From Apostichopus japonicus (Eukaryota; Echinodermata; Holothuroidea; Aspidochirotida; Stichopodidae), in assembly GCF_037975245.1 (NCBI RefSeq), contig NC_092571.1, positions 25,000,564 to 25,064,563 of the forward strand: DNA of 64,000 nt, read 5' to 3'. A model generated the notes under the pieces. It ran no database searches. It had not been told where the DNA came from and saw only the letters and a list, made by a program, of their open reading frames with translations. Within the stretch, counting starts at the first letter, position 1. Each line of letters begins with the position of its first letter. This document shows positions 629 through 22,749 of this stretch, piece by piece. Both the position numbers and the translations under genes were made by a program.

Positions 629-1555
629 GACATCCAACCAGTATCCTCAGGCTGCTCCACCCTTTTCTTTCCCTTACATTCCAGCAACTCAGTCTGTCCA
701 GCAAAATCAAGGTCAATATAAGCATTGATTTATTATTCTTTTGTGTCTTCAGAGTAGCAGGTTATATAATTAACTTATTAAATTTACTTGAATTTATTTC
801 CACATTGGAGATATTAACTTGAGTGACCAATGTAATCTTCTGTAAGAAAGCCAGAAAAGCATGTTTTCTTGCCCAAAGAGAAACTGAAAATTCACTTAAC
901 TTGTGAATGACAAAAGCTGCTTCCCATAAGGAAATAAGGCTAGGCTGAGTATCTATATACCACTAGTCACTAGAGCATTGACATATTTTGACTAGATTCT
1001 CACATTTAGCTAAACAGAAAAAAAAAACTGGTAGGCTTACCTTAAGTCTTATGAGTCCACTTATGTGAATAATTTAGTATTTAAGTTTTGAAGGCTCTGA
1101 ACTATTTTCTCTTATAAAAAGTCTGTTTTCTACGTAGAAAACTTCTTATACATCTTTTACATTTAGATAGCAATTTGCCCATTTTGAGTATCATTTTGTG
1201 ATGCAATAATGGATAAATTATTCCTTGGTAATAAGTTTGATAGTTTGACTAATCAAGCTTCAAATAATGTAGTCTCCATTGCCTTGAAACTCTCATTTTG
1301 GCTCTTAAAGCAATTTTTTAGTATACTGTCATTCAAAAGTTACCGGGCGACGAGGATTGTATCAAATTAGTTTGCTGGATGCTTACCACCATCTTATAAA
1401 GGATTGTATTTATTTTAGAAAGAAAGAAAAAGATCCTGAGGATACAGGATCCTACTAGTGGCGAAGATCTCACAGAATCGATCTTGCGAGATGGTGTTGT
1501 CATCCCAGCCAGCAGCCAGGTGGCAGGTGCAGGGCCCTCTAGTTCTCCACCTCAG
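629..1555 (+). CDS. N-terminal exons with PABP-binding-type motif
   Basis: Two exons, 629-711 and 1419-1555, joined through a split codon (G at 711 plus AA at 1419-1420). The first encodes a Pro/Gln/Ser/Tyr-rich stretch ending SVQQNQ, typical of eIF4G N-termini. The second encodes ERKKKILRIQDPTSGEDLTE, which resembles the basic-IRIRDP-D-TEEI segment that binds PABP in vertebrate eIF4G1 and eIF4G3. Seen: the motif, the splice sites and the consistent phase. Inferred: PABP binding. After the donor at 1556 the frame stays open for only 23 more codons, so the exon most likely ends there. Confidence 0.85.
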
Positions 1556-4500
1556 GTTGGTACCTGCTATTTCAAGATCAGTAGACCCATCAGCTCTCCC
1601 TTCTCACAGTCCTATCGTCCATTCTAAGCCTTTCCCGACCTCCACTTCCACATCCCATCCCTTGGTCTGTTTCAGAACCCGGCAACTTTTAAGAGTCGTC
1701 CCATCATCGCCAGAGACTTTCAGATTTGTGTTTGAGCAACCAACATCAGCGTAGGGTGTTGTCTGGCTGACAAGCTGTTGTTTATATCAAATTCTAATTG
1801 AAAGCTGGATACACCAAAATTTCAATTTGAAATTTATTGGTGTCATCATTCATCACTTTGGAGATAATGAATATGAATTAAAACTAGCGATGCTGTACAC
1901 CTCTTTCCACCCTATAGGGGTGGGGGAAAGGGTTTACTAGTCCAAAGCTGGTGTTTTATGGATAAAACCTATTCTGTCCAAATCACTCCTATATTGTACA
2001 TAGTTATTGTTATTTTGTTACATTTCTTTGGACAACCCAATTTGCTGTTCGGGCAAAAAAAAGTGAAACCTAGTTATTCCAGGGACAACCAGCAAAAGTC
2101 CTTATAAGTCAGTTGCCCAAACAGCAATTTGGTTGTTGTTAAAAGAGTAGTGAAACAACAGAGATTGACCAATATGTATACTGTAGGAGATTGTGCAGGT
2201 TCATTGAATAGAACACCAATGGAAACACTGTAGGAGAAATGTTTTGGTTTGGTGAATAGAACACCAGTATGTACACTGTAGGAGGTAAGTGTACGTTAAT
2301 TGAATAGAACACCAATGGGAACACTGTAGGAGAGATGTGTAGGTTCGTTGAATAGAACACCAACTTTGGGCCAATAAATTTCCCTCTCGGGTGGATCATA
2401 ATAATACCACTGTTTTTGTTTTATTTCAGTATCTCCAAGTGATGGAGGGTGATGTTAACTTATCATTTAGGGTTTATTTAATTACAATACAAACTGAATT
2501 TGATGTATACAATTAGTGGTCTGTCAGATGACTTCTATAGCTGATTTGGTTGTCAGTACAGAAAGTTTGACAACTGGATGTCTATTAAAATATGCCCTGT
2601 TAATATTATTGTAAAATATTTGTTGAAGATGCTAAACAATTGCAATCCATGAAATGGAACATATCCGACTGATCTGTATTCTTTTCCTTTTTCGTTTTAA
2701 CTTGATTTGCCATTTTTTTTGTAATAATTTTGCCCAGACCTGGTCCTTGGTCAAATACTTATTTTGCTCTGGTATAGGTATAAGCATTCCATGTTTCATG
2801 TTGTCTCCCACAGCATAAAGAACCAGAATCACAAGTGCAGGAAAGCAGACGGATCCAGGCAGAGTTCCTCACCAACGTTTCACAGGTGGCCAGTAATCCA
2901 GGGAGCAGAAAACTCTCTAAGAGGGCCCAACTAGAAGATGGTGCACAGCCAAAAGGGCCATTATTGGCACAGATAGAAACGTCTAGCCCGGTATTTACTC
3001 CTGCAGCACCAGCACAGATTAGTAAACCTCCAGTAACCACCATTCTAAGCCTTTCCCGACCTCCACTTTCACAGCCCCTCCCTTGGTCTGTTTCAGAACC
3101 CTGGCAAATTTTTAATAGTAATATTTACTTGCCTCAACAATCTCACCATCATCTTATCTGTTGAAAAAAAGGGGAAAAAAGGTCATCGTTGTGTAGGTGC
3201 CTGAGGTTGAAAATGTATTTGTGCATGTATGAGGAGTGTGAAACAACAAGATACACTTATAATAAAGTAAAAGTTTTGGCACAGTGTTTAGACAAATGTT
3301 TATGAATATTGAATGTGTCAGATTGAATGTTATAAACAAAGGGAACCGTCTGGCCCCTAGTGTTTACAATCATATCGGTGGCTGGTCAATTAATAAGGTG
3401 CACTCAATGGTGAATCCTAGTAACAGTACTTTGGGTAGTTTATGCTAACAAGCAACAATTTATTAATGCTCGAGTGAAGCTGAGGCGGAATGTTTTTCTA
3501 TATGCAGGCCTTACAGTCATGCTTAATAAAATACTATGGTATCTTCGTACAAACCTGCTAGAGATCTTTGCACTTGTATAGCAATTATTTTGCACAGCCT
3601 TTTTGCGATTTTGATACTGGATAAATTAATTCGCTGGTTCGGTTCATCCGTATAGTGTTGCAGCACGTAGAATTTTTGTGCCCCCTCTTGGTTTAAAGCA
3701 TATACATTGAATAATAAATAATAAATTTTCATGCTCTCTGTGATATGTTTATTTTTCTGCAGATGACCAGAAAAGATGTCACATGCAGTGCAGGATTAGA
3801 GAATGGCATATCTAGGACTAGTTCCTCCACAGAGACCTCCAAAGCCAGGAAAGGAGCTACTCGAAGTGAAAACCAGGAAAAATTGTCCAAATCACAGAGT
3901 CATACTAATTCCAAACAAATGAAGCTGAAATACCCTTATAAAGAAGGTAGTTTGTTACAGTTTCTGTCAAAGCAAGTGTTGATTATCCTTAAAGTACCCG
4001 GACCCCACTCCCATGCAGGGCTGTTTGTCAATTCTATGGACAAGCTCGATAAAGAAAAATTGATGTTTATTTTCTCATCAATATGATTTACAATAGTTTG
4101 ATAATAGAAATAATTACCTAAAAACTCATCAAATAATTGACCTTTTTAAGATTAAAGAAGTCATGTAAAATTTTGTGCAAAACAAAACATGCAATTCTTT
4201 GACAAGTTTTGCACGTCCAATTAAATAAAGTGTTCTTGTTTTGGTCGGTACAACCATTCTTGAAATTAAGATAGAAAAATGGCTACTGTTCATTTGAGAC
4301 GTTCCTTTCCAAAGTGTTGCAAAGGAACGAAAGAAAAAAGGAACAAAAAACAGAAATCAAGTTTGATTTGGTTAAAAACTTGTCTTTTTATTTTACTTTT
4401 CACTGGTCCAAATAAGGTCAATGGAGTCCGATAAACCAAGCAGGAAAAAAGAGATACGACAGGGTATTTCTCCTCAGTGTTCAACCAGACTGTACCATTA

Positions 4501-7500
4501 GGCCAAAGGGGTTACCAGACATTCCAGAGGTTATTCTTCCCAAGGTAAATTATAGGTCTGCTTTATACATTCTTTTTGGAAATGTATAAACGATTCAAGC
4601 TCTGTCCAACTAAAGAGTCATCTTTTGAATGAACTGATCTTTTGCTGGCTGGGTTAGGCATAAATTATGTAAGGCTGTATTCAAAAGAAAAACATGCATT
4701 ACCGTGGACAAAAGAACACTGTTCCGTTGCGTATATACTTCACAAACAAGAACACTTCCTATGGTTATTTTGCAGACGAAGTTGTGAATAATCGGTGTAT
4801 AGCCAGCAACTTCACGATCACACGCAATGAGTTATATTTTGGTTCTCAAATGTTTTATCTTGTTTCTTAAAAAAATATTTAAGTCCTTGAAGATGTTCAA
4901 ACACAAAACCATCCACTCTGCAGGTTTACACATTAAAATTTCTGTTGTTCAAATAGATAAAGATTGGCAACCTGTTGTCACCCCCCCCCCCCCACACAAA
5001 CACACAACCATCTCAATTTCAAGTTCCCACCCACCTCATACACATGTCACAGGGATTATTTTCCCCGTCTGGTCAACATCTTCTTATTATACAACTATGA
5101 AATGTCCCAAATACAGCAAAATGTAAGAAGAAAGGGACATAAAGATTTATTACAATATTTATCATATATGAATTGTTAAGCTCTGCAAATATCTTATGAA
5201 CTCTTTTTTGACTTATTTACTTTTACCATTAATTACATTTTCAGGCAGAAGTAAGGTTCCATCACAGGAAACCTGTGACCTCCAAAAGTGTTGATAACCT
5301 ATCCACACTGACTGATAGAAAAACAGATTCAACTGTTGTGAGTTTATATATAATATTGTTGCTATTTTTTAATTCAAATCAGTTGCCTCAAAATAAGTTC
5401 ACATCAACCATTACAGTATCAGAGTTGTGTATGGCAAACTTGCTAAGTTGGTGAAGGTGTATTGTAATTGATGGTGTGTCCACTGTAGCATGCATTAAAC
5501 TTTTAGAAAAGGGGCAGTGAAGTCGTGTGTAGGCATGTAAAGGCTTGCATGTGTAGACATGTGAAGGCGTGTGAAGACATGTGAAGGCATGTGTAGGCGG
5601 CATGTGAAAGAGTGTTGCTGCTGCATGCAGTTGTTTTTCATGTTTTGCTGAGTGTAAGCTGTTAGATTAACCGATACAGGCTCTTGGCTTGGAACCTGCC
5701 GTGACTTGGTCAGATGTTTTCTCTTCAAGCTATTATTTAGAAACAGAGTTCTTTTTCTATTCCGGTTCTCTCTGAATTGACACAGGGATTAATTATGACA
5801 ACTACTAAAATTGGTAGCGACACTTTTAAGTTTTTCCGGAAGTCTATTTTCATTTCATGAAATATAGAAAAAAAGACTATCAAATATTTCACATCTGTTG
5901 TGATTTTGACTTTTTGGTGATTTATAAGTACGTATAAGTATGCCAAGATTCTTTTCAGAATCTAATCTATAGCATTATTGAGTTTGCAATAATTAATTAA
6001 TTGTATTTGGTGACAAAATGATGGAGAATGCTTCAGTTTGATCTATATTTTATTTCAATAATACCTTGTAGGATTTGGTAAAATCATTTTAAATTGGCAA
6101 CAGACTGCAAAAGCTGCATTTACTAATTTTGTTTGATTGTTACTAAAAATTCCATGGATCTTTACATTAATTTGATTCATATGTCACCCATAATTGCATT
6201 CTCTTTCCTTCATACCAGTCACTTTTATACAAAGGTAACCTCTCAAAGAAATGAAATTATGTTACATTTTTAATTCATTAATCATTTCAGAACACGCAAA
6301 AAGTTATTAAAGACAATTGGGATAGGAAAAAATCTGATCAAGTGAGCAAATTAAAAGGGAAAAGCTCTGAAAAGATAGCTGCCGTTGAGTTTACTGCTGA
6401 GCAATATTGTGAACCACAAACTATAAGCAAGCAACTCAAACTGAAGTACTCTTACAGAGAAGGTAAGTTCCAATAATCATGGGAATGTATATCTTTCCAC
6501 TGTTTCAATGAAAGAAAAAAAAATCTTTTTCTTGTGATTCTATTTTATTTGTAATAAACATTTCCCTCATTGTTCTCGGTTGTAAAATAAATATACCATG
6601 GCATGCATAACTGTGCTATTCAGCTAATCAGTTGCCATATACAGCTAAATTAGCATTGACTCACACAAGTAATTTTGTATTCTTGGGAGTTTAAAAGTTT
6701 GTTTCGAGAAATAGCTTCTTGTTTTTTACTTCAATGCTACAGCAGAAGTTTGGTCTGAATGTTAATAGTAGAAGGTTCATGCTGTCCAGGGGTGTAACAC
6801 ATAAAGTGATACTGGCTCAGTCATCCAGGCTTGACTCTGGGGACTTGAAACTTTTGCTCGATTCATTTCTTAAACGACCAAGAGGGATTTGGCACCTTCG
6901 GAAGCTCAAAGTAGTGGTCCATGAAGGCCCATCAGTTTTGAGTTGGTGTACCGTTTTATTTCATTCACCCCACCTCCCTTTCAGTGATACTATCCATATA
7001 CTCTATGGACAAAATTAGAAGATGTGACATGCCATTTTGACCTTTGAAATTTATTAAATAAATTGATTTATCTTGTTACAAAACCTTAGATCAGTGGAGT
7101 CCTACAAATCAAGACGGGCAGAAGAAGTACAGCCGAGATTTCCTTCTCACCATCCGACCTGAGTGTATCGTTAGACCAGAAGGGCTACCAGATATGCCAG
7201 AGATCATCTTTAAAAAGGTAAAGTCAGGCGTGTAGCCAAAAGGGGGGGGCAAAGGGGGGCACCCCCCCTCTTGATCATATTTTGTTTGTATATTTTTACG
7301 ATATCGCTAGTAATTTCAAGCTTAGATGCAACTTACAAGGCCTGGGAAGTGCCATTTCCAGCGATCTGGGAGGCATTTTCAGCCAAAATTTTCTTGTACG
7401 GGTAGTGCCAACTCATGGTGACGCTACTGTATGCTTCGAGAGTTTTCAATGCAGGATCTACGGCTCTGATAGTTTGCCTACAGGTTCGCCCCTCCCTTCG

Positions 7501-10500
7501 CAAATTCCTGGCTACGCGCCTGACTAAAACTAAATTTTACCTGTATGTAATTACTATACATATATATTGAACATTTAATTTGTACTTATATCTATGTATG
7601 TATTCATACACATATATATATTTTGTTTTTTCTTTTCTTTTCTTTTCTTTCTTCAGGGAGTCTTCCACACTGTTAAGCTTTTAAGCTTTATGGAAGACTT
7701 CCCTCCACTTTGTACTTTTGTGGCAAACAAATAAATAAATAAAGTACAGTGTACATAGTAAACTAGCTAAGCTTGGGCTCATGTCAAAATCTAGGCCTAG
7801 TGTTCATCTGGGATTTGAACCTTAAATGGAATGGATGGCAGGGGGGGGGGGATGGCGGCCTGAATGGAGAGCACATGGAGGGGGGAGATTTGGAAGGGTC
7901 AACAAAAAATTGAAGTTGGTTTGAATTGCCAATTTACATATGCCTGTTGTATTTCTCTTCAACTGTTTTAATGAAGGGTGATTGAGGTTTGTGATTTTCA
8001 CAACTGTATGACAGTGTCCAGTGTAGCATTAACACCAATATGCAGTGCTTGCCAGTTGGTTGTTTTAACAAGTAAACTTCAATAATGATTTAATGTGTGA
8101 TCGAAGCACTTCATTATAACTACAAGTTAGCATTAGAAATATTATCTTAACAATTATTTTCATATTTATTAAAGAGGTAATTGGTGTGAAGTTGAAATAG
8201 CCTAGAAATGTTTTACTAGAAAATGAAAGTGGAGGGAGGGGAGGGGGAGAGGGGTGTGGGGTGATTTGCTTTTTCAAAAACTAAATTTTTGAAAAAGAGG
8301 AAATGCAGAGGCCACTTTACTATCTCATGTTTGTACTGCATGATGTGTGGTACCATGAGGATATAATACTTTCACTTTAACTATCACCCTATCCAAAATA
8401 TCTTTTAATAGGCTTTTTATCCTAATAAAGACTAAAGATATTTTTGATAGGGTGATAGTTAAAGGGAAGGTGTGAAGATCAATCTTCAAGTATGCTTCGA
8501 GTTGTAACTGGCAGATTAATTTTATTATAAACAAATTTATAATTGCAAATTGATGTATTCCTTTTTTTCTGTGATATGAAGTCAATAACTGTTTAATTAG
8601 GTCCAAACCTGTCCCAATATTTCGGTACTAACTTATTCCTAGAATATTTGTGTAAACAGTGCAAGAACCTACACCTCCAAATTAGGCTTATCAGTCAAAC
8701 AGGTCGAGATGATGTATTTAATTCAAAGCCACACTGTGTTAAAACTTTTCAGTTGATGTTTATTGATTATTTAAATTGTTTATTTTTCAATGGTTTACAC
8801 TCTAGGCAAAGGTCTGGCCTATTCTTCAGTATGAGTCCTGTGCTTTGAAAGTTACCAATATCGAAGAACAGCCAAGAAATTCGATGTCAGGGAGAGCAAT
8901 TGTAAGTTCACATGTTTGTTTAATACATATCTTAAAAATAGAAAACCTCAATTTGGTGATATTAGAAATCACTCAGTTGTTTTCAAATATGGATGTTGCA
9001 AAATATGACATTGTGTTGATATGATGTAGGCTTTCCTGGACATTGGAGCTGACTATACAATTGGGGGAGGGAGGGGGTGGGGGTTGGGGGTAGATAGTCT
9101 TGATATATAGTAGTGGTCCTGCAGTAGGCAACCTTAAAAGCCAAATCCTTCCACGAAAGATTTCAGTCCACGTAAACGTATCGGCCCACAAACTTTCGTT
9201 AATCTGGAATGCTTAACCTTGAAGCCTTGTATAGGCTTGAGAACCATTCCCATTCTATCTGTAAATTGCTTATCTAGGTATATTGAGATTTTGATTCTCT
9301 CTGGCCCTTTACCCCAACCCCATGTCCTTCTCTGACCATCGTAGCAAAATTAATTGAGAAAACCATCATCGAGAGGGTATCATGGCTTGTTCAATGTTTC
9401 ATGTTAGGGCATTGAGGTTATCAAAACAAAAAGTTCAGATTTTTCAAAATTAAGACAATTCTGTTGAATGTTAATAAGATGAAAGAGAGGAGCCAAAATT
9501 GTGTCATTCTGATTGTGTAACATGTAGCATAGGACCTGTAACATGTAACACAAAGGGGTCAAAGTTCATTTGTTAACTGGTTTCATGGCTTGGTTTGTTT
9601 CCCTGTGTAGGGGGACAGAATGAAATATACATTAACTTCTATAACTTTATGCTATTTTTTATTACAATAAACATAGTCACCAGCTGTCCCGCCTCCCCTC
9701 TCCTCTGTCAGCAACTTGTGTTCAATATGCAATATGCCAAAATGATGACTATAAACCAACATTGTAAAACTCTGAATTGAAGTTTGACTTATTGTGTTTT
9801 GTTTTGATTGTTTATATTGGGGCCTGTAGATATCACACATTCACCTCAGATGACATTCCAGTGCTCAGAAAATCAAATTTTGGTTGCTAACTCTTGTTTT
9901 GTTAAAATTAATTAGACATGTTCATTTCAACAAACTCTGGTCCTACCCTGCCATCAAACAGATGGGTTTAGGACTTCATATAGGACTTTTAACCTGACAA
10001 ATCCTGACCTTGTGTGATATGGGCTATCTTTCAGTTATTCTTTTGTTCTGTGGATTCATGGTAGCCTTAATTATGTCCTATCCTGTATATTTTAATGATC
10101 ACTCAAAAATGCCCGCTAGGTCCATGGTCAGTACTAACATGAGCAGCTGGGGCTTCTTGAGGCAAGTGATAATCAGCCCCTTGACACTCTTCACTAGTTT
10201 TGCTCAAGGCTGGAATAGTCAAGCTTCCATGCCAAAGTGGTAAGATTCTAGGATCATAAGCTGTGATTGAAAGTTAATAAATATTTTCTAATATTAATAT
10301 AAAATTGATTCCTTTCATTTTTTTATTTATACTGCTTCAATCAAATATAAGTGGAGCAAAATTAAGGTATGGACACACTCCAGTGGTCTGTATAGAAATA
10401 CAACCTGGCAACTTGGTATGCTTTTTGTTTTTGTAAATACATCTCCCTCTTTATGTTTCAAATTGTTTCATTTTATGGTCAGAAAAAGAACGAGTCCTCA

Positions 10501-13500
10501 ACCGTAGGTGTGGCACCATCGACCGTTACAGAACCAAAAACGACCAGCAAGAATGGCGTAAAGAAAAATTTAGTGTCAGCAGAAGACAGAGAAAAGTTAA
10601 GTGGCGCTAGAAGCAAGAACAGGATTCAGAATGGTAGACGTGAAACTAAGAAAGAATTGCAATTTATGTTGGAAGAAATCAACGTTTATACTGCAACTGA
10701 GCAAGATCAGCTGTCACTAGCCAGAGGTAAGTTGTATAAAATATTACAAGAAATAACTTGATTTGGGTTAGAGCATGCTGTGGAAAAATTGAATTCTCCT
10801 CTTACAGTTTAGTGTTAAGAAAAATTCACATTGTGTTTGACCTTGACAGAAATAATGGGACAGGTGGGGTGGTGCGGTGGGGGCGGGTGGGTGGGTGGGT
10901 GGTTGGAGGTGGGTTTCATATATGGTAATGGGAATCTCCTTTATTGTTACCTGATTCTAAAGCAGCTTATTGAATTAGCATGGTAGTTTATGGCTAGGTT
11001 ATTATTTCCTTCAATTTGTTGTCCAATTAAGTTTACTTTAATTAGGAACAGAATACAGGACAACCAGCTTAATACAGGAAAAGGGAATTAAACGGTCTAG
11101 TTCAATTACTGTGCTCTTATGCACTAAATGCTACTTTTTTAAACATCAACTCGGGCATTTTCAAGACCACTGCGTGGGATGATTTTGATCAATTTGCTTT
11201 CAAAAATACGCTAGAATATTTGAATGAAGATTACCCCCTCCCCTCCCCCCACCCATCTACGAATTAAAAATTAAAACAGTGGAATCCAGTGCATAGAGTG
11301 GTATCGTTAATATATATGTTTTAGAAATGGAATTTACAACGAGCCACTGTATTCTCTGTTTTGCCCAAACTTTAGGTCAACGGAATTTAACGCATCAACT
11401 CGGAAAGAGGAAATACTCAAGGGATTTTCTTCTTGGCTTCCAGGGTGATTGTACTTGCAAACCAGATGGAATGCCTGATGTGGTGATTGAGAAAGTAAGC
11501 TACAATATCATATCTCTTCTCAAGGATGAAATGGTCTGTGACTAGGGGGGTAGGAGCCGGGGGGCACTGGGGGCACATGCCCCCCCCCACTTTTTTCCAA
11601 AATAGCAAATGGGCCCTACTGGCAAATAAAATATGCCCCTTTGATGAAGAACTGTCTTTTGGATATCTTAAGCCTTTGTTAAGTTTAATATTTTATTGTA
11701 ATTATTTAGTTTTAGTCTGTACATGCTATTTTTAACTTTTGATAGCACGGTTAGCAATAAACAATCTCAATAAAAAGTATTTATAGCATACTAACACATC
11801 GTATATATTTAAGTGATATGGACGGTGTGTATCGGTTTATAACATAACGAGTGGTGGTTGTGGAATGAGAAAGTGCCCCTCTGATGTTGTGCCCCCCACT
11901 TCTTGGAAGCTTCCTACCCCCCTGTCTGTGACTAGCTCAACAGTAAACAGTTTGTTTCTTCGGTGCTTTTATATTAAAGTCCTTACTGATATCTTGGCAA
12001 TGGTTTATAATGAATAGTGATTCTTTTTTTTGTCTCAGCAAAGTTGCCTCCTAATTATGGGTATTTCTTTATTTATATCTTTTGCATTGCTTTGAAGTAG
12101 CAGAATTACCATTTAGAATTGGTGATGATTTGATGATGTGATCGGGGAGTGGCCAGATAGAAATTTTTAAAATAGTCAAAAAGACAGCAATGCTTCCAAT
12201 TCTCACCAATTCTCAACCGACTTTGAGATACATGGAGAACATATGCCATACAGAGTTGAGACTGTCTTGCTTTTATCGATTTGATTTCTTTTTAATGAAT
12301 AAATTACTGGAAGAGGTGTGGCTTTAAGTTTGCATTGCACTTTTTTTTTTATTTCCCTCAAATTTAATTTTTTTTTTTTTCATCTCAGGATCAGGTTAAG
12401 GTTGTGTTTCCAAAAGATGATTTGTTATCAGAACAGAAAAGAATTCAGACAAACGGTTTGAAAAAGGGAAGATTATTATCGGAAGAAATTCAAGAGGATC
12501 AGTCAAGATTAAGTAGCCGCAGAAAAAACCAAGGGAAGCATGAAGTTACCGAGGGTAACAGGAGAGAAAATGGAGAAAACAAACTCACTTTTGGAGGAAT
12601 CGGACTACAACAATACCAATCAATACTTGAAGGAGGTAGGATATATCAGTCAAAGGAAATCTTGTTAAAAAATTAATTATATCTAATAATATTAAATGTT
12701 TGAAATGAAAATATGTTGTTTGACCGAGTTTCTATGGTAACAGACGAAGGGCTAATTGTTATTTGTAATTTGTGAATAGTTTCTGTTGGATGTGATTTGC
12801 ACTTGTTATACATTGTTTAGTTATTGATTCTTGCATCTTTAGTTCCTATGGTAACGGACCAAGGGCTAATTGTTATTTGTGAATAGTTTCTGTTGGATGT
12901 GATTTGCACTTGTTATATATTGTAAAGTTATTGATTCTTGCATCTTGAGTGGCAAATTTAGTATTTCCACTGTTCCTGTTAACATTTATTTTGTTAACAT
13001 TTATTTTTCTTTATATCCATTAATTCAATTTCTGAATTCCAAACCAATTGTGTTGGAAAATGAAAAAAAAATGATTTTGGAGTTGAAAACATTTAAAAAT
13101 AAATTAACAGTGTATTAAAACAAATTTAAATGATGCATTAGCAAATATAAACAGCTTTATAGGTTTATAGTACCTAACCTAGTGTAAACAGCTGGAGAAG
13201 GTATTTAACAACAATTATCAACTGGACATTCCCTTTAATCTGCAAAGGCCTCCAAAAATATCTTTTCTTGACAAAACTAACAGCAAAATTGAATTTGTTA
13301 GACATCTTCTCCAATACAAAGACCACTTTGTTGTGATTTACTTTTGATATGGCCTTTCATGACTAAACTTTGAATAAAAAATGTAAGTGTGTCTACATCC
13401 CTCTCTAAACCTGAAGAAAATATTTTTTTCTGTGGAAGAGACAAATTTTGTTTGTTTTGCTGCATTTTGTTCAAAGTTACTGCAGGAGCTGGGACCAGAC

Positions 13501-16500
13501 CAAGAGAAGATCAACAACCACAGATAGAAGGTAGGATATATTTAGATCAACATCAACATATTTAGATCAACATCAACATATCAGATCAACATCAACATAT
13601 TTGGATCAACATATATTTAGATCGACATTGCAAGTACTGATTAAGGCTGGATCTTGTCAAGTTTTTGTAACTTCACTGTAAGCAAGACAATCGTGTTTTA
13701 TTGAGGGGATCATGATTGCCCAAATTTAATTCCTCATATACAACTCGCTAGATGGGTATTACATGACTGAATCTTCTGTTTGTTTGTACTGTGCACTGCA
13801 GGGGAGCAGGTACCTCTGCTGTCCTCAGGAGTGGGGGGGGGGAGGTAAAATGTAAAGTCATCAAGGGATGGGGTCTAAGAGAAGGGGTGTTCCTCCCATT
13901 TGAGAAATTTTGATAAATGGAGGGTGTGCCTAGATGCAAAATGATGCTTGAATTTAATAGTAACTTCCAAAACGTTGAAGAATTTTCAACTGTTAATACA
14001 TATGTATGTATTGTACACTAGGAATTTGTGTAATATTCTGTCTGCCAGTGAGGTGGGTAGGGGAGGGGGGGTAGGTGATGGGCTAGTCTCAGGAATCGAG
14101 CATCTCATGCGTAAATGAAGGTCCATGGATAGGTGTGAGTTTATTGACGATTTACATGTATGTAGTATCACTCATAGTAACATAATTGCTATGGTAACCA
14201 ACCAGCCATCCAGTTGTTTTACAGAGTGTTTAGCCTTTGCCTTATGAGCAGATGATCAGGGAAACAACCAAGGATATGTGGCCACAGCTTGGACACTTTC
14301 TTCCATAGAATCAATCAAGCTTCCAGAATTGGTTATGCTCCAAATAGTGAATCTAGCTTCGATAACCTCAGAGCTGTTTTGTCTAAGGGTTACCATAGCT
14401 ACAGGCATACTGAGGCTGATGGGAGATTTACTTCTTGGACATGATAAATGAATCCTGTCACAGTTCTACTTCTCAATTGCATAAAAAAAAAACAAGTCCA
14501 GATAATTATGTAATTAATTTGTTGCAGATGTATCGGAGAATGTGGAGACACAAGAGGAGGTTGCAGCTTCATCTATGCAGGAACCATCAGAAGATGTGTA
14601 CAGGGAGACATTTGAGGGAATAATTATAGAATATTTGACTTTGAGGAATGTTCAGGTAGATAGTCACATTACTCATCTAAATGTTTGTATTGGATGACAA
14701 AATGATATAAAAAAGAAACCTTTTGCCCTAAAAATCAGTCATGTTATTTCCTTATACTGATAAAATATTACGTAATTAAGATATTAAGTAATTACATGTA
14801 AAGCTAAATTCTTTATGAACTAGGACAATGTTATCCTGTCTAGTTATTACTCCTTAAAGTATCTGTATCATTCTGCTCATTCAACTTGTATTATTTTTTT
14901 CTTCTTTACCAAGGAGTCTTCTACTCTGTTAAGCCAATTCAGGCTTTATAGAAGACTTCCTTTCACATTGTATTTTTTTTGTGATGAAACAAATAAACAA
15001 ACAAACAAAATAGGACAATATATTGGCCTTTTTTGTTGCTATTCCCAATGCTGTCAACATTATCAGACAAACAAATTTTCTAGCATTCAAACACTAAGAG
15101 CAACTATCATAGTTTGGTGAACAGTAAACTGGGGCCCTGGGTCAATAATAGGGTCCAGGTAAATGTGGAGGGTCATGTGCCCAGAATAAAGAATACTATT
15201 TTCAAAATTCAAACTTCAAATGCCCAACCTTGCAATTTAGACCTTGCCTCCCCCTCTCCCCACAAGGTAGCAGAGCAGTATTCAACCACCTCAGAGACAC
15301 ACCTAGTCATTCCAAAACATTTCGCACGCCTATAGCCCATCTATATAGGTGGATGCATCTGCCAAAATCAGCCTGGGGAAATTTGGGAATCCCCCCACCC
15401 CCCTACCCTTTCCCACCTGGAAAATCCTATGCACACCACTGCAACAAAGTGAATTTTATTTACCTATTTATAAATAGTCGTTTCTTTCCTCCTTCTCTTT
15501 AGAAAGCCTGTTCCAGTCTCTCAGATTTACCAACGTCTTGCTTCCATCATCTCTTCGTCTCCCTCTCTCTTGAAATGGTTCTAAATAAACATTCAGGCTT
15601 GAGGGATTCAATCGGAAGGCTGTTCCATTCTCTCTTAGACTCAGAGATCGTGTCCAAGGAGCAGTTCAGCATCGGGTTTGTAAAACAGCTTGCAACTTAA
15701 TAATTTGCTTTTTTGGAGAAATTTGTTGTTCTGTGAGTCACAGAAAATTAACGTGGAGAAGGAAAGCCATATAAGAATTGTATATAGCTAGACACGGTGC
15801 AGTGAAGGTACAGGTGTGCGTGGGTGTATGTATGTATTTGTATGTACTTTAGATCCTGCTGCAAGCAGGAACTCGCGAAGGAGCCTCTTTGGCTCATCAA
15901 AGCTGCAAGCTGACCGAAGTCAGTCTCTTAGATTCATGATTATGAGTTGTCAATTGTCAACAACTCTGTAACTGGACGACGTACATTAATCTTGGAGTGA
16001 ATTGAACTGGTGACTTGAACTGGTGGAACAAGTAAAATAAATAGACTCAATATCTGTCTATGACAGGTCTTGAAAAAAAATATGTTATTGTGATTTAGTG
16101 AGTCAAAAGTAAACGTGGAAAAGGCAAGCCCTGTAGATATTAAATGAAGCTAGTGTGGATGAAGTGAAGGTACAAGTAAAAAATGATAAACTCTTCCTAA
16201 GACCTCTAGTAGTTTTCTTTTTGAAATACAATTGATGGGGTTTTTCTGGTATGAAACAGAACGTGTGGTGGCAAGCTAGGATAATCAAAAATAAATTACT
16301 CCAAAGTTTTCTACATCAAGAGGTCCTGATGGTTTCTTTCATTATCACAAGGATGAATTTTGAAAAGAACAATCTAAATTGGTTAATTATATCTGGTAAA
16401 AGATGAGCAAAGGACATGGTAGAAATGGCACAAAAACCTGCAAAAATATTAAAGAAAGATAAAAGTATATTACATTCTTATTAGAAACAAAAGGACCAAA

Positions 16501-19500
16501 CTTTAACGAGGCGTTGCTTTACTCGCTAGACTGGTTGATACTTGCAAGCTAATTAAGATTCCAATTATGTTTAGTTTTTGCATGTTTAAAAAAAAACAAG
16601 CAGATCATAAAGAGTATAATTATGAAATTTTGAAAGGAACAATATTTTGCTGTTAAAATATGTCAGGACCTAATTTCATATCCTTTTCAATTATAATTTA
16701 ATATTATTTGCAGTTGGGGAGCTGAGTGAGTTTATTCGCAAAGCTTGTTTAATAGTTTATAAGAACATCCATGACTGGATTAGTAAAGTTAGATAAGTGA
16801 GCCTCGCTACTGTACATGTTGACAAGTTTTGTCAGTTTGTCATTTGTTTGTCCGTTTGTTCGTCCGTCCGTCCTTTCATTCGTTCATCTTCTTTCGAAGA
16901 GTATATGCAAAGCCCAAATTGCATCGGATTGCGCCATGTAACATCTAGAAATTTCAACATTTTCCCGGGGGGGGGGGGTGAGGGGGCATGCCCCAGAACC
17001 CTGAGATAGTGCGAGCCTTCGGCGTTCATGACCTCTGGAGTTAGTACTTAAAATGGTCCACTTTTCATAAAATCCTTAAAATGGTCCACTCTTCATAAAA
17101 TCAAACTCACCCTATTGAAAAGCTTGATATGGGCCTGGTATCTGGGAGTCTGTCGTCTAGCAAGTTTTCATTGTTATGAAGCTTTCATGCGACAAAGGTG
17201 TTCTCTCTACTTGGCAAGAACATTTAAAAGTTAATAATGTTACCATGGTTACCATCAGGAAGTATTTCTTCAGTGAACCAGTAATCTTTTTTTACGCATA
17301 ATTCATAGTATCATGTACCAATAATGATGTCTGATTCTTTCTTGGATAGATTTGAACTCTTTCTGGAGTCCACCACTGAAGTCGCTTGGTCGAATTCCTC
17401 CTTTTGGAAGAACCTGGCAGAGATCTTGGCTGTCATGGTTACTGCGGGAACAGAAAACTTGGAATTTATGACAGAAATTATTCAGACACTCCCCGGCGAC
17501 GGAAGTCCCGTTTGCCTGATGATTGAGACCCTGAAGCAAATTTTGAAATCAGGAGTAAGATTAAACTGAAGTTTTCTTGCTTGAGAGTAGACATTTAAGC
17601 TTGAAATATATCTGTCTTTATCAAATCTTTTTTTTGAAGTTTGCATCAGGGATGTCTCATAACAAGTTGCAGTGAATCTCTGTGGTTTGTATAATTGTGA
17701 TTCCCTAAAACTGATTTATAACATAATATCGAACTGGTTCAAAGTAAACATACACAGAAGAGGTATCAGTTTGCTTCACACCCGGGTAATAAGTCAAATG
17801 TATTCCATTTCTATATTTCATATTTCTATCAGCTATAACGAATTTACTTTTTTCTCTGTCTCGTGAGCTATCTCTGATCATTTCAAGCTTGAAAACATTG
17901 AGAGCCTATCATCTCAATTGTTTACAAAGTTCTGCTGAATGATATAGCTATAAAATGGTTCTATGGTGATAGCACATTTCCTTGTCGGACTTTGCTACTC
18001 CCCCGCCCCCCTCTCCAACCCTGTCCATCTCTCTGCTTGTAATTTAATATCCTCTGGTGGTCAATAAAGGCCTGACGATGGTTACTACATCATGAATATT
18101 CATCGAGAGATCTGTCACACATTTCCATTTTTGTTTCTCTGCAGAATGTCTACCAAGTACTAAGGTTCTGGCGGAACTCAAAGTTTAATTGGAGCCAATT
18201 CGCTCCCGATGACTTAGATATAAAAGAAGTTCTGGAGAAAGAGGTCAGTGTTTTGCTTTCAATTGTTACAAATGAAGCAAGAAAATCAAATCATATTTTA
18301 TGTTATATACTGCTGCTTCTAAGGAAGAAGGGAACTTCAAGTGGCCCAATGAAACTTATACTACAGGTTTTCATGTTTTAAGCAAGGTTTTAGTTCGTTT
18401 GAAATTTGATCGGAGCCTTATACTGCTCAACTGATCACAGTACGTGGTCGCATATGGTCGTAGATGCTTTGAATGGTCATCTCATACAATTCTTATCCAT
18501 AGATGATAATATTTTAAATTTTTAGTGAAGTCTGTATTGGTCGAAATGTTATCTGTTCATTAATACTGGTATCAGCAAACGGCATATTTTACTACCATCC
18601 CGGGGTTTTCAAACTGTCCTTTGTGTAGCCCGGTACAAGTAAAGTATCAATTAGGGGAAGATAGAGGACGTCTTTTATAGTACATCAAAGTAACAAAACC
18701 ATATCTCAAACAGTGGAAAAGAAGAACAGTATAAAATGATAATAAAATAATAAATGAAAAAAATCAGAAAAAATAAAATAATATATAATTACAACAAAGA
18801 AAACCCCTTATATTTGTTGCTTCTCCCTTCAAATGTCACCAGAAACTCGTCTTCATTCTTCCACCGGAGAAAAAAGTGAAGAAAACACCAAAAGTCAAGA
18901 AGGATCCCCTTCCTACTGAGGTAAGTTTTGGTTATGTACCAACAGTGACGTCCTGTTTGAAGACACTTCTTGGTCTTGCCTGCCGTGAATATATTAAATC
19001 TGTGTAAAAGTAAGTTGGCCTGACGTTTCAATCCTAGCAGAAATCTTTTTCAGAGGCTAAATGACAAGTAACAGTAACAGAAGGGATAAAAACATGCACA
19101 GAATACAGACAGGTTAATGAGCACGGTGAACACAAAGAGATAGATGTAAGGGGATTAGTAGACAAGGGATGGAGAGAAGAAAGGCTCTCTAGTGGATAAG
19201 CAGTTTACTAACAGTTTTATTATATATAATATATTAAATAGTAAGCCTGGTGTCATAAAGTAAACTGAAACAATCAACAACAAAAATAAGTTCCGTATTC
19301 TGTTCTTAAATTCTTTTTGTTTCATTGATGGTTCATTTGTAAGTAAATTCTCTTATTAATAGTTTCTCAACAGTTATACAAATGGAATATCTTTCCAAAT
19401 TAATATTCATGATACACTGGTATATGATATCATGTTAGTTATCATCAGCTAAACGATCAGTGGCTTAATCCAAACAGTGGGCTTTATACACAGTTCTTTT

Positions 19501-20993
19501 TTTAATTTGCTTGATCTATTAAAAATCATGGTGAATTTGATGCAAAAATATGAATTTATGATTGTATATTGAGGTTTCTATAAAAAGTACAGACTTCAAC
19601 ATCAAGTTCAATTGTGTTTCCTGTTGAATTCAAGAATCAAAGAAAATATTTCAACTTGTAAATATACAGGCAATACAAACATCAATATCACAGGCTAATC
19701 TGTACTGTGACCTGGCTTTAATATCAGCAGGGAATTTTGCAAAAAATATTGAAAAACTCCACTATTGTGAACCTATACATTGCCATTTTGACTTTTTAAC
19801 AATGACCACAATTCTTGCAAAAGGTAGAATGCATTGGTTCGCTCAAGATATCACCATAGTTACAGCAGGCTTTGATTTTTATGCAGATGCAATATACTGC
19901 TTCATTATTGGATGTATTTATCAAACAAGAATTATATTGACTTTGCTGACTTTTGTTCACAGATTCCACAAAGACAGATGAAGCACAAACGAATAGAAAA
20001 GTCAATATCTTCCTTTCAGAATGGCTTGTTGAAGTTGTTACAAAGACAGCCCACGCAGCATAGGAAAGCTTTTGATTTCATTGAGGTGAGACCAGGACTT
20101 TCCTTTGGAAGCCAATTTGGTAAAAATTGGACTATAAATAGACCCATGATTAGACCCAGGACTAATGGTCGGCCAAAACATTTTCTTGAAGGGTTCCACA
20201 AATTGGAAAGGAAAGAAAACTGTCAGTATTTGTCTTGAAAAAAAAAAAACTGGCCAAATCTTGAGCAAAAGTTGCAAAATAAAAAACCATTTTGCAACTT
20301 AAATTGCATGGGTATCATTTCTGTCTTTTTTGGCTTTCCTGTGAATTGTCTTACTCTGTTGACTGCCAATCCAGAAAATGATTATTGGCTGAAACCGAAG
20401 AAGATTAAATAGGGCTAAATCTTGATTTGGTTGTAGTAATTATAAAGCACTTTCACAATGCTGTCCACAGTTTTTTATTTCATTTTTCAGAAGTCAAGTT
20501 TATTCAATTCTCAGACCAAGTGTGATTGTCATTATGGAGTGTTTGTGAGAGCTAAAGTTTAACTATTAAAATCTGTTTTGTTTTTCATTCTTTGTAGAAT
20601 TCAGTCAAAGAGGAAGTGAAGAGTACTAAAGAATTCATTCAAGCACTGGTCTTGGCTGTTCTTATGTCCACAGCTGTTGAGGGTTTGTATTTTGTTTAAT
20701 TAAGCATTTTGTGAAGAAAAGCATAGTTACGTTGCTACCTTGCCTGTAGGGCCTTGAACAGTAGCACAATATATCTTCTTTTAAGTCTATTAAATACTCA
20801 ACAGACTTATACACTAGTTTTCATGTTCAGGAATGCCATATTGGTTTGACTAAGACCCATATCATATGCCAAATGTTGCAATCTTTCACAAGCGATCATA
20901 AATTTGGCCCTGGTTTAGCCAAAGTACATAAATTCACATAATATACATTATACAATATATATATATATATATACACACACATATATATACATA

Positions 20994-21036
<43 letters not shown>

Positions 21037-22749
21037 ACGTTTCAATTTACAATGCACATTAACTATACGTTCTTCCTGTAGGTGACGTTGGACCCTACAC
21101 TAAATGTCAACGAGAACTACTTAAGAGAAGATCTGCTCTGTTGCGAGCATTTGTCAGGAAAGATGAAGCATTGCAGATGCAGGCAGTGCAAGTAGCCCAG
21201 GCATTTTCTGCTAGTGTTGGAAATCCACCAAGTAAAAAACCTTGTTTAGTTAAATTCCTATTTTTGAATTTCTTTGAAAGCAGCTTTTTGAGTAGATTTT
21301 GATCCTAATTTTTTTCGATGCTGTTTTATATTAAGATCTCATATCAAAAGATCTCATTTAGCTTGACTGGTTAAGATTTATTTCAAATAGAGGATTAAAA
21401 GTCCACATATTTTGGGAGAAATTTTGAAAGTTTCGGAGGTTTGAAACAAGTTTTTTTAAAATACTTACTCATGAACATTTCCTTGATGGAAATATCTAGG
21501 AGAGTGTCTTTGTTTGATCAATTACAAATCATATTTTGAGTAACAATTAGTAGGTTTGAGCTCAACTCAAAAACGTTGCTTTAAAATAGTATTGTATTGT
21601 GGTAGAATAAAAAAATTAAAAAAATATTGCTACAAAATGTCAGCATAGACAGGGATGTGCCCACGCTGGGCACTGGGCCGCCCCGCCCAGCACTAAAAAT
21701 TACCACCCAGCACTGTCTTAAAAATTGTGAATCCCGCCCAGCACTAATTTTCATCTAAAATCCCACCATTCCTAACAATATATTCAACATAAATTGGGCC
21801 TAGCCTATGCCAAAATCATACAGACTAATAATGCATCAGTTACACATGAGAGAAACATTACTTACGGCTCTCAATCGGTACCTTGTAAAATATCTATGAA
21901 ACAAACTAATAACTTTTACCAGGTACGTAATATATTTCACTAAAAAAAAAGGGGACACCCCCTCCCCCTTAGACCCCTCCCCCAGGATGGCGATCAGTAT
22001 ACCCCGGCACTCAGGAAAACCTGGGCACATCCCTGATAGATATTTTGAAATGTAACTTAGTCTTCATGATGGAGGTGAAAAGTTACTGCAGCTAGGCGGC
22101 TTAATTTATGAAAATAAGGTATTTGTCAACAACATTGACATCATCATGGTAGATAAAGGGAAGATTGTTAATTTTCTATGTGATTTCCTAAATGTTAACT
22201 TTTGTCCATATTTTGATGGAGTTGAAACTATCACAAAATTCAGAAGTGCCCATTTTGTTTACATAAAAAATGTCCTCTCCAATCTATTTTTTGATGTGAT
22301 TTCCTAAATGTTAACTTATGTCCATATATTAATAGAGTTGAAACCATCACACATTTCCAGTTCCCACCACAAATTTCAGAAGTGCCCATTTTGTTTATAT
22401 AAAAAATATACTCTCCAACTTGAGGTGTTCCGTCTCATAGCAATGTGATTTGGCAGGTTGCTTCCTTACGACAAATGTACATGTCCAACTGTCCTTTGAA
22501 GTTTGTTCCCTCCCTCCCTCCCTCCCCCCTTCCCCACTTTTTAGATTTCAAAAATAACATACAGGCTATTATGCACCCCTTTTTCATTTTCTTCTTTTTC
22601 ATTTTTCAGAATTTCTCAGAACGATGTTTGAAGTATTTTACGATGAAGATGTTGTTTCAGAAGAGATTTTTTATACCTGGTTGGACAGTGAAGAAACCTG
22701 TGCTACAAGTAAATTAGCTGCCAGCAACTTCTTCAACAGCTTAGGTTAA
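629..22749 (+). CDS. eIF4G paralogue with three eIF4E-binding modules and no MIF4G domain (5' end not found)
   Basis: Translation-initiation scaffold paralogue. Exons: 629-711, 1419-1555, 2814-3032 (3' end uncertain), 3763-3946, 4417-4544, 5245-5337, 6291-6462, 7090-7217, 8806-8901, 10483-10726, 11376-11494, 12389-12635, 13486-13530, 14528-14655, 15503-15675, 17350-17554, 18145-18243, 18843-18920, 19963-20085, 20598-20682, 21082-21231, 22610-22749. All join in frame with GT-AG borders, giving about 1,024 residues to a TAA stop. Order in this fragment: PABP-type motif (about 28-45), eIF4E-binding tyrosines at about 221, 352 and 508, MA3 (about 650-800), W2 (about 801-1024). The 500-plus residues seen in the conventional copy between the 4E module and MA3, including MIF4G, are replaced by about 115 unrecognised residues. 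Exon lengths and phases match the - strand eIF4G at 46354-63342. The initiator exon lies upstream or was not recognised. The eIF4G identity is firm; function is inferred. Confidence 0.92.
2150..2370. repeat. About 57-bp tandem repeat (minisatellite), intron
   Basis: About four diverged copies of a unit built around gaatagaacaccaatgggaa and cactgtaggaga. The length is close to a multiple of three, so the - strand stays open through all copies and would repeat a motif like SPTVFPLVFYS. No splice signals or family match support it as coding. Confidence 0.8.
2814..3032 (+). CDS. Variable N-terminal linker exon
   Basis: Starts after the acceptor ttgtctcccacag and is phase 0, matching the exon before it. 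It encodes a hydrophilic Ser/Pro/Gln-rich linker (KEPESQVQESRRIQAEF, later AAPAQISKPP) with no recognised domain, as expected for the poorly conserved region between the PABP and eIF4E sites. The 3' end is uncertain: GTAACC at 3033 and GTATTT at 2991 are both phase-0 donors, and the frame stays open past 3110. Confidence 0.65.
3763..5337 (+). CDS. eIF4E-binding cassette 1 (exons 3763-3946, 4417-4544, 5245-5337)
   Basis: Three exons with phases 0 to 1, 1 to 0 and 0 to 0. The first ends with LKYPYKEG, comparable to the KYEYKSDQW lead-in of human eIF4G1. The second (128 bases) reads GQWSPINQAGKKRYDRVFLL, then a Pro/Gly segment ending GLPDIPEVILPK. YDRVFLL is a perfect YX4L-phi eIF4E dorsal-surface helix. 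The trailing GLPDIPEV segment matches the region that in animal eIF4G makes the second, non-canonical contact. The third exon (93 bases) encodes a linker starting AEVRFHH. It matches in length and start the 93-base exon of the conventional eIF4G at 62319-62411 (ADVRPHL). Confidence 0.92.
5525..5605. repeat. gtgaaggcatgt minisatellite
   Basis: Irregular tandem copies of a 12-20 bp unit (gtgtaggcatgtaaaggc, gtgaagacatgtgaaggc) within an intron of the + strand eIF4G paralogue. Confidence 0.75.
6291..8901 (+). CDS. eIF4E-binding cassette 2 (exons 6291-6462, 7090-7217, 8806-8901)
   Basis: Second copy of the cassette with the same phase pattern. The first exon ends SKQLKLKYSYREG, close to SKQMKLKYPYKEG in cassette 1. 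The second exon is again 128 bases and encodes DQWSPTNQDGQKKYSRDFLL followed by a segment ending GLPDMPEIIFKK, so both the canonical YSRDFLL helix and the downstream segment are intact. The third exon (96 bases) encodes a linker starting AKVWPILQ. Exact length, splice phase and motif conservation argue for a functional exon set rather than a pseudogene. Confidence 0.92.
7225..7522. mobile_element. Short hAT-like non-autonomous DNA element
   Basis: Ends are inverted: CAGGCGTGTAGCCA at the left and TGGCTACGCGCCTG at the right, the CAGG-type ends typical of hAT elements. No clean 8-bp target duplication remains. It starts 7 bases into the intron after the donor at 7218. Its interior (gggaagtgccatttcc, caaaattttcttgtacg) is related to sequence at about 42235-42330. 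Confidence 0.7.
7635..7742 (+). mobile_element. LINE 3' tail fragment
   Basis: ggagtcttccacactgttaa, then a second arm tatggaagacttccc forming a hairpin, then aaataaataaataaa. The same arrangement occurs at 14910-15010. A shared 3' hairpin followed by a simple A-rich repeat is typical of 5'-truncated LINE copies; the family assignment is inference. Confidence 0.55.
8375..8464. repeat. Inverted repeat, about 30-bp arms
   Basis: Left arm ctttaactatcaccctatc plus caaaatatcttt; right arm aaagatatttttgatagggt plus gatagttaaag. The arms pair almost perfectly around a loop of about 28 bases. Intronic; possibly the core of a short foldback element. Confidence 0.8.
10483..12635 (+). CDS. eIF4E-binding cassette 3, diverged (exons 10483-10726, 11376-11494, 12389-12635)
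   Basis: Third copy. The leading exon (244 bases) is long, charged and no longer has the KYxYxE lead-in. The core exon is 119 bases, three codons shorter than the other two, and encodes GQRNLTHQLGKRKYSRDFLL with an intact YSRDFLL. The conserved DQW is replaced by GQR, and the downstream segment is shortened to GMPDVVIEK. The following exon (247 bases) ends in phase 1, unlike cassettes 1 and 2. It encodes a very hydrophilic Lys/Arg/Glu-rich linker with no recognised domain. Confidence 0.88.
11544..11923. mobile_element. Non-autonomous DNA transposon with 10-bp target duplication
   Basis: Terminal inverted repeats AGGGGGGTAGGA and TCCTACCCCCCT. Flanked by the direct repeat GTCTGTGACT at 11534-11543 and 11924-11933. 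No coding capacity in 380 bases. The long duplication points to a Mutator-like element rather than hAT, but the family is not certain. Confidence 0.75.
12731..12950. repeat. Two-copy tandem duplication, about 112 bp
   Basis: The block from ctatggtaacagacgaaggg through attgattcttgcatctt is repeated immediately (second copy from about 12844) with a few changes. Intronic; no coding content. Confidence 0.85.
13486..17554 (+). CDS. MA3 (HEAT-2) region of the divergent eIF4G paralogue
   Basis: Exons 13486-13530, 14528-14655, 15503-15675 and 17350-17554. The first is a 45-base linker exon. The MA3 fold starts at about SEDVYRETFEGIIIEYL, equivalent to [16 protein letters not shown] in the - strand copy. 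It continues through LRDSIGRLFHSLLDSEIVS (copy: [19 protein letters not shown]). The last two exons are 173 and 205 bases, identical in length and phase to 52123-52295 and 50498-50702. MA3 normally binds eIF4A. Here the AEDMEIDIP stretch of ordinary eIF4G is replaced by LESTTEVAW, so eIF4A contact may be altered. Confidence 0.88.
13537..13625. repeat. atttagatcaacatcaacat minisatellite
   Basis: Four imperfect copies of a 17-21 bp unit, beginning just past the donor of the 45-base exon 13486-13530. Confidence 0.8.
14910..15010 (+). mobile_element. LINE 3' tail fragment, second copy
   Basis: ggagtcttctactctgttaa, then tatagaagacttccttt, then aaacaaataaacaaacaaac. It matches the 7635-7742 copy in both hairpin arms and in the tail. 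No reverse transcriptase remains. Confidence 0.55.
15800..15990 (-). mobile_element. SINE fragment, copy 1 of a family of three
   Basis: The reverse complement contains gactgacttcggtcagcttg, gcgagttcctgcttgcag and a tail of tac/atac repeats, the same order as in the copies at 33697 and 52810. The tRNA-like head is not visible here. Confidence 0.7.
18145..22749 (+). CDS. W2 (HEAT-3) C-terminal region of the divergent eIF4G paralogue
   Basis: Exons 18145-18243, 18843-18920, 19963-20085, 20598-20682, 21082-21231 and 22610-22749. Key matches to eIF4G: FWRNSKFNWSQFAPDDLDI (first exon 99 bases, as in the other copy), KAFDFIE, STKEFIQALVLAVLMSTAV, and FYDEDVVSEEIFYTW, the first aromatic/acidic box of W2 domains. 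The second box (in the other copy [16 protein letters not shown]) is reduced to KLAASNFFNSLG before the stop, losing its Trp and acidic tail. One extra intron splits the segment that is a single exon (48982-49128) in the other gene. Confidence 0.9.
20955..21034. repeat. (TA)n microsatellite
   Basis: About 80 bases of TA with short ACAC interruptions, ending about 47 bases before the acceptor of exon 21082-21231. Confidence 0.95.
21650..22035. mobile_element. Non-autonomous DNA element with CAGGGATGTGCCCA ends
   Basis: Inverted ends CAGGGATGTGCCCA and TGGGCACATCCCTG, with ATAGA directly repeated on both outer sides. 386 bases, no transposase. hAT-like termini, but only a 5-base duplication is visible. 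It lies in the last intron of the + strand eIF4G paralogue. Confidence 0.7.

What the first reader, a model, noticed from the sequence alone, without database searches (positions are those of the whole stretch)
629..22749. eIF4G paralogue with three eIF4E-binding modules and no MIF4G domain
Seen: three separately encoded YX4L-phi modules (YDRVFLL, YSRDFLL, YSRDFLL), each in its own intact exon, followed directly by MA3 and W2. The exons from cassette 3 to MA3 join in consistent phase, leaving no room for the five-exon MIF4G present in the - strand copy. Known: ordinary eIF4G has one 4E module plus MIF4G, which binds eIF4A; DAP5 keeps MIF4G and lacks the 4E module. This is the reverse of DAP5, with the 4E site multiplied. 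I know of no described animal protein with this order. Inference: a multivalent eIF4E tether or sink that cannot build a normal eIF4F complex.
Basis: partly seen in the sequence, partly recalled or inferred. Interest (0 to 1): 0.92.

Follow-up and report, generated by a model that had tools for sequence, protein, structure and literature searches.

The report
Rearranged eIF4G relative, three eIF4E docks
A sea cucumber chromosome carries an old, still-constrained relative of the translation scaffold eIF4G with three docking sites for the cap-binding protein instead of one, and the piece thought to be missing (MIF4G) lies just outside the window, in front of those sites instead of behind them.

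Summary
Partly confirmed. Three eIF4E-binding modules sit on the + strand in separate exons with GT-AG ends and matching phases, and run in frame through MA3 and W2 to the stop at 22749 (16 exons, 800 aa). Against the ordinary eIF4G copy each module shows saturated synonymous sites and low pN (0.19-0.30): old and constrained, not a recent stutter or assembly merge. "No MIF4G" is an effect of the window edge. A complete, divergent five-exon MIF4G plus an E17-type exon lies on the same strand 5.4-1.05 kb before the window (Pfam 42.0 bits, cut-off 30.8), phase-compatible with the first cassette exon. Exons at about 0.6-3.0 kb are a recent broken fragment of the ordinary gene, probably inside an intron. 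Most likely product: MIF4G'-4E-4E-4E-MA3'-W2', a permuted and multiplied eIF4G. No transcript evidence was available: whether MIF4G' joins the cassettes, and whether all three modules share one mRNA, is inferred. Species: almost surely Apostichopus japonicus. New variant of a known kind.

The parts
3763..3946 (+). linker exon l1 (phase 0->1), ends LKYPYKE; follows AG|ATG
4417..4544 (+). eIF4E-binding module 1 (YDRVFLL), phase 1->0
6291..6462 (+). linker exon l2 (phase 0->1), ends LKYSYRE
7090..7217 (+). eIF4E-binding module 2 (YSRDFLL), phase 1->0
10483..10726 (+). linker exon l3 (phase 0->1), lacks the LKYxYxE end
11376..11494 (+). eIF4E-binding module 3 (YSRDFLL), 3-residue deletion after the canonical motif; phase 1->0
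12389..12635 (+). exon x7 between module 3 and MA3 (0->1); no homology, weakest of the exon calls
14528..14655 (+). MA3' first exon (E20 homologue)
15503..15675 (+). MA3' exon (E21 homologue, 25 of 57 identical to gene C)
17350..17554 (+). MA3' exon (E22 homologue)
18145..18243 (+). exon E23 homologue
18843..18920 (+). exon E24a (extra, no separate counterpart in gene C)
19963..20085 (+). exon E24 homologue
20598..20682 (+). exon E24b homologue
21082..21231 (+). exon E25 homologue (start of the W2 region)
22610..22749 (+). W2' last exon and stop codon (E26 homologue, shortened C-terminus)
1..3119 (+). right part of an inserted fragment of the ordinary eIF4G gene (whole fragment window -866 to 3119): E5 at about 618-711, E6 without its 5' part from about 1418, E7 cut at about 3040
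46354..63343 (-). gene C, the ordinary eIF4G (4E module, five-exon MIF4G, MA3, W2); its exons E1-E9 lie beyond the window's right edge

Best explanation
The locus holds an ancient, diverged eIF4G paralogue (gene B). Its MIF4G' exons start 5.4 kb before the window; three linker+eIF4E-module pairs, MA3' and W2' follow. The linker+module pair is a symmetrical phase 0-0 unit, so it could be placed after MIF4G and tandemly multiplied without breaking the frame. Mechanism (inferred): one B molecule docks up to three eIF4E (or one eIF4E with raised avidity, or eIF4E variants) while keeping HEAT-domain contacts, so it works as a multivalent cap-complex scaffold or eIF4E reservoir beside the ordinary eIF4G (gene C). 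Shown: exon anatomy, open frame, domain matches, long constraint (clear for the modules, with a smaller margin for MIF4G' and MA3'). Inferred: that MIF4G' joins in one mRNA, that all three modules are used together, and eIF4E binding.
For: 22 exons (5 of MIF4G', E17', 16 in the window) give one open frame of 1,047 codons and a stop, with all 21 introns of the model GT-AG. Joined exons match Pfam MIF4G 42.0 bits (6-202 of 203), MA3 49.5, W2 33.8, PF21140 33.8 and 28.4. MIF4G' and 4E1 match solved human eIF4G. Constraint: 0 of 500 codon-shuffled controls reach the observed pN for each of 4E1, 4E2, 4E3, MIF4G', MA3', HEAT3'. Modules are the most conserved part (74 of 123 codons identical to C, against 59/188, 60/185, 60/161). 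Human eIF4G residues named in PMC8558276 as touching the lateral face of eIF4E (Leu633, Ile636, Val639, Val640; passages) read L,I,V,I in 4E1 and L,M,I,I in 4E2 (my reading of the alignment). Genome searches with single exons find the MIF4G' exon E15' at two places, B's and a damaged sister copy; E21' in B and otherwise only in A and C; and four 4E modules, three in B and one in C. Apart from the inserted fragment, E17' and l1 are 0.8-0.9 kb apart.
Against: No RNA evidence. Fourteen AWTAAA hexamers lie between E17' and l1 (the region's density, 1.89 per kb, predicts about nine) and l1 begins with AG|ATG, so two transcription units are possible. The inserted fragment could supply its own exons or an end. 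For MIF4G' and MA3' the margin of the shuffle test is small: plain identity (56/188 and 60/185) does not exceed the best of 500 shuffles (0.30 and 0.33), only pN does. 4E3 is below the family cut-offs, lacks the QWSPLN lead-in, and its linker exon lacks the LKYxYxE end. l1 can splice in frame to 4E1, 4E2 or 4E3, so one-module isoforms are possible. MIF4G' is only about 30% identical to C and its eIF4A contacts were not tested. Donors of E21' and E24b' (GTTTGT) are weak. I chose exon ends with the frame in mind, so frame continuity is partly built in, above all for l3, x7 and E24a.
Confidence: 0.52

Rival explanations
1. One reading: the protein starts at the ATG of l1 (or in upstream fragment exons) and has three 4E modules, MA3' and W2' but no MIF4G; MIF4G' belongs to a separate, perhaps decaying, unit.
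For: Open 800-aa frame from the ATG at the start of l1. MIF4G' also exists as a second copy (D1) next to copy A, apart from any cassettes, and that copy has an in-frame stop. D1 against D2 shows no clear constraint (dN/dS 0.88).
Against: MIF4G' of D2 is open, matches the whole Pfam domain and beats all 500 shuffles on pN, though narrowly. I saw no terminal exon of its own; without the inserted fragment E17' and l1 lie 0.8-0.9 kb apart; phases fit.
Confidence: 0.27
2. The three modules are alternatives: splicing from a linker exon picks one 4E exon, giving ordinary single-site isoforms with different eIF4E preference.
For: Phases allow l1->4E2, l1->4E3 and l2->4E3.
Against: The linker exons were duplicated with the modules, and l1 and l2 each end with the conserved LKYxYxE that raises the score of the module beside it (24.1 to 33.8 bits and 22.9 to 28.4 bits), which points to joint inclusion.
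Confidence: 0.17
3. A dead gene: pieces of old eIF4G copies that are no longer expressed.
For: The neighbourhood is full of partial copies: D1 has a stop and a truncated E17', the inserted fragment has broken exons E6 and E7.
Against: Gene B is open over the 22 modelled exons, with saturated synonymous and low nonsynonymous divergence, clearest in the modules; a neutral sequence of that age should not stay open or alignable.
Confidence: 0.07
4. Assembly error that merged copies.
For: Similar inverted and tandem copies (A, C, D1, D2) are hard to assemble.
Against: No N in the 264 kb. The searches with 4E1 and E21' find B's modules and MA3' exon at one place each, and the three modules differ from each other at saturated synonymous sites, so they cannot be merged alleles or recent copies.
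Confidence: 0.04

Closest known systems
Metazoan eIF4G1/eIF4G3 (eIF4GI/II), and gene C of this locus
   Same: Same parts: PF21140-type eIF4E module, MIF4G, MA3, W2; same intron phases as gene C in the MA3/W2 half; five-exon MIF4G as in gene C
   Different: One module placed before MIF4G in gene C. Here three modules placed after MIF4G' and before MA3'; HEAT parts only 30-39% identical to gene C
DAP5/eIF4G2 (architecture recalled)
   Same: Divergent eIF4G paralogue with MIF4G, MA3, W2
   Different: DAP5 lacks the eIF4E module; here it is multiplied
Mextli (domain order recalled: MIF4G, KH, then eIF4E-binding region; listed as an eIF4E-binding protein in passages of PMC8558276)
   Same: MIF4G domain ahead of an eIF4E-binding region
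   Different: Mextli has one eIF4E site, a KH domain and no MA3/W2 (recalled); the modules here are eIF4G-type
Drosophila eIF4G-2 (listed as supporting translation initiation in testis in PMC3359775, passage)
   Same: Lineage-specific eIF4G paralogue
   Different: Conventional single-module order (recalled)

Membership tests
eIF4G family (animal) | MIF4G domain (PF02854) | tested here: met
   Joined exons upstream of the window 42.0 bits, cut-off 30.8; that they belong to the same mRNA is not shown
eIF4G family (animal) | MA3 domain | tested here: met
   49.5 bits, cut-off 23.2
eIF4G family (animal) | W2 domain | tested here: met
   33.8 bits, cut-off 30
eIF4G family (animal) | eIF4E-binding module (PF21140) | tested here: met
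   Modules 1 and 2 above cut-off 27; module 3 did not match PF21140 and is below cut-off in PF12152 (17.6 bits, cut-off 27)
eIF4G family (animal) | order 4E - MIF4G - MA3 - W2 with a single 4E module | tested here: not met
   Genomic order MIF4G' - 4E x3 - MA3' - W2'; a profile of the four modules found no fifth in 264 kb, next hit E 0.085
eIF4G family (animal) | binds eIF4E and eIF4A | not testable with these tools
   needs pull-down
DAP5/eIF4G2 | no eIF4E-binding module | tested here: not met
   three modules, two above the Pfam cut-off
Mextli | KH domain between MIF4G and the eIF4E site | not tested
   The linker exons were not scanned in full; MA3 and W2 are present instead

The most novel reading that the evidence does not exclude
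An animal eIF4G paralogue with a permuted order, MIF4G-4E-4E-4E-MA3-W2, kept under selection long enough to saturate synonymous sites, that binds several eIF4E molecules at once and so nucleates multivalent cap complexes (bridging mRNAs or storing eIF4E) beside the ordinary eIF4G.
Probability: 0.4. Interest if true: 0.78.

Novelty: new variant of a known kind. Interest (0 to 1): 0.62.

Why it matters
eIF4G's part order is usually taken as fixed by the geometry of eIF4F (recalled). A natural, old paralogue with the eIF4E dock moved behind MIF4G and tripled would test whether scaffold order matters and what eIF4E valency does, in an economically important animal. The same locus underlies a published papilla-number association whose genotyping primers match two copies here, so the duplication map has practical use.

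Tried and rejected
Rejected: assembly merge; recent tandem duplication of the module (saturated synonymous sites between modules, pS 0.73-0.91); dead gene. Looked for a fifth 4E module in 264 kb by profile (open frames of 15 aa or more): the three of B and the one of C; the next hit had E 0.085. Rfam scan of the window at gathering thresholds: 0 hits. D1 against D2 gave no sign of constraint since their split (dN/dS 0.88; exonic dS 0.058 while intron and upstream sequence differ by 10-14%, unexplained), and the inserted fragment against C gave 0.66 on few changes: neither shows selection. In some searches the D1 E13 exon was mislocated by my script: the string taken as D1's ended in D2's own E13, so those 21 codons in the D1/D2 total carry no information. 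In one search D1's E17 was also read in the wrong frame (right). The Fisher values are not used as evidence because protein-guided alignment favours identity; the shuffles carry that control. Literature searches for eIF4G with several eIF4E sites or other domain orders: 15 of 112 papers listed; 9 of 9; 3 of 3; 12 of 48; 1 of 1. For eIF4G in sea cucumbers: 48 (10 of 10), 62 (10 of 617). I read the listings, and passages of four papers (PMC10344927, PMC10077181, PMC3359775, PMC8558276). Nothing listed describes such a protein, but the library holds open-licence PubMed Central text only. No relative from another echinoderm could be searched with these collections.

Full report
Setting. The window is C11:25000564-25064563 of a 671,581,487-base genome in 35 contigs. 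Size and contig count are close to the Apostichopus japonicus assembly (671.6 Mb, 34 scaffolds, HiFi reads; passages of PMC10344927). The two SNP primers published for the A. japonicus EIF4G locus match this region without mismatch (PMC10077181 Table 2, passages). The species is therefore inferred, with high confidence. I fetched 100 kb on each side and joined it to the window (no N). Coordinates below are window coordinates; negative numbers lie left of the window.

Gene C. The minus strand carries an ordinary eIF4G: one 4E module (about 63343-63212), a five-exon MIF4G (E12-E16), MA3 and W2 down to the stop at 46354, with exons E1-E9 beyond the window's right edge. Its joined MIF4G scores 159.1 bits. 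The published qPCR forward primer fits the last 17 bases of my E4 plus the first three of E5 (primer; the 17 bases match; E5 start), and the reverse primer matches E6. This supports the model, and the paper reports expression in papillae.

Gene B, the finding. The three modules are real. Linker exons l1, l2, l3 run phase 0 to 1 and module exons 1 to 0, with AG and GT at their ends. From l1 to the stop at 22749, 16 exons give an open frame of 800 codons. Intron phases in the MA3/W2 half agree with gene C. Joined exons score MA3 49.5, W2 33.8, module 1 33.8 and module 2 28.4 bits, above cut-off; module 3 is below cut-off. 4E1 aligns over nearly its whole length (2-50 of 50) with human eIF4G1 of entry 5t46, and 4E3 only weakly (E 0.011).

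Age and constraint. Against gene C the modules have pS 1.02, 0.81, 0.94 and pN 0.19, 0.24, 0.30; between modules pS is 0.73-0.91 and pN 0.21-0.33. In a control with codons of C shuffled and realigned, 0 of 500 shuffles reached the observed pN for any of 4E1, 4E2, 4E3, MIF4G', MA3', HEAT3'. For the modules and HEAT3' the plain identity also exceeds the best shuffle. For MIF4G' (56/188; best shuffle 0.30; pN 0.480 against a shuffle minimum of 0.496) and MA3' (60/185; best shuffle 0.33) it does not, so there the case rests on pN, open frames and the Pfam matches. The modules are the best-conserved part: 74 of 123 aligned codons identical, against 59/188 (MIF4G'), 60/185 (MA3') and 60/161 (HEAT3'). 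The alignments of the diverged domains have gaps and depend on the aligner (MIF4G' pN 0.459, 0.480). The modules therefore duplicated long ago and each was kept.

The missing MIF4G. Searching the flanks with gene C exons gave MIF4G-like exons on the + strand left of the window. Five MIF4G exons (E12' -5414..-5280, E13' -3894..-3832, E14' -3608..-3492, E15' -2573..-2370, E16' -1485..-1363) and an E17-type exon (E17' -1148..-1050) are open and phase 0 at each junction. Joined, they score 42.0 bits for MIF4G over profile positions 6-202 of 203, and the five MIF4G exons match human eIF4G1 and eIF4GII chains. A sister copy (D1) lies about 45 kb further left; it has an in-frame stop in E14' and a truncated E17' fused to a partial E3. 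A whole-genome search with E15' finds only these two places.

Between MIF4G' and l1 lies a fragment of an ordinary eIF4G gene, about -866 to 3119, 84-93% identical to gene C in its collinear blocks including introns. E4 is shortened in frame, E5 is intact, E6 lacks its 5' part and E7 is cut. Some of these exons could still be spliced into B in frame; I did not model that. Without the fragment E17' and l1 are 0.8-0.9 kb apart, in the range of the other introns of the model (0.2-3.3 kb). This, the phases, and the single intact MIF4G' and single MA3' of this type found by the exon searches make one gene with order MIF4G'-4E-4E-4E-MA3'-W2' the best reading: 22 exons, 1,047 codons. Against it: 14 AWTAAA hexamers in the gap (about nine expected from the region's density), an ATG at the start of l1, and no transcript data.

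Copy A. A second ordinary-type copy lies on the + strand about 45-14 kb left of the window. Its blocks aligned to gene C are 74-92% identical; it lacks the stretch that holds E4-E10 and so has no 4E module. Its E18-E26 look constrained (dN/dS 0.23) and E11-E17 less so (0.57).

How it probably works. Each module keeps YX4L-phi. Modules 1 and 2 also keep the segment that touches the lateral face of human eIF4E (residues from PMC8558276, passages). By homology each should bind eIF4E; three in one chain would give avidity or several eIF4E per scaffold. MIF4G' and MA3' might still bind eIF4A, not tested. Three loci of the genome hold IF4E matches (C6, C10, C20; 7 exon matches, a lower bound), so partner choice is open.

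Novelty. The listings of the searches named under Tried and rejected describe no protein with this order. All domains are of known kinds, so I rate it a new variant of a known kind.

Noticed in passing
window 655-1187 (+), and gene C beyond the window at window-scale positions 69834-69307 (-): Both SNP-verification primers of a published papilla-number GWAS (AJAPscaffold243_127089, PMC10077181) match two places without mismatch: gene C (528 bp) and the inserted fragment in gene B (533 bp) (264 kb examined). The reported heterozygotes may be partly paralogue differences. Genome-wide check not answered.
   Followed up: partly
C11:24955418-24986911 (+), left of the window: Copy A: a recent copy of gene C on the opposite strand without the 4E exon, a DAP5-like set of domains arisen independently; the usual E11 acceptor is mutated and the E15 donor reads GC.
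   Followed up: partly
C11:24955364-24955495 (+): D1: exon E17' is fused in frame to a partial E3 of an ordinary eIF4G inside one exon, upstream of copy A.
   Followed up: partly
C11:24968076-24980465 (inside copy A): Arrays with regular offsets of about 180 bp, in both orientations, seen in a self-comparison.
   Followed up: no
window 30299-30672: About 53 copies of the 7-base unit GAGGAGG at 100% match.
   Followed up: no
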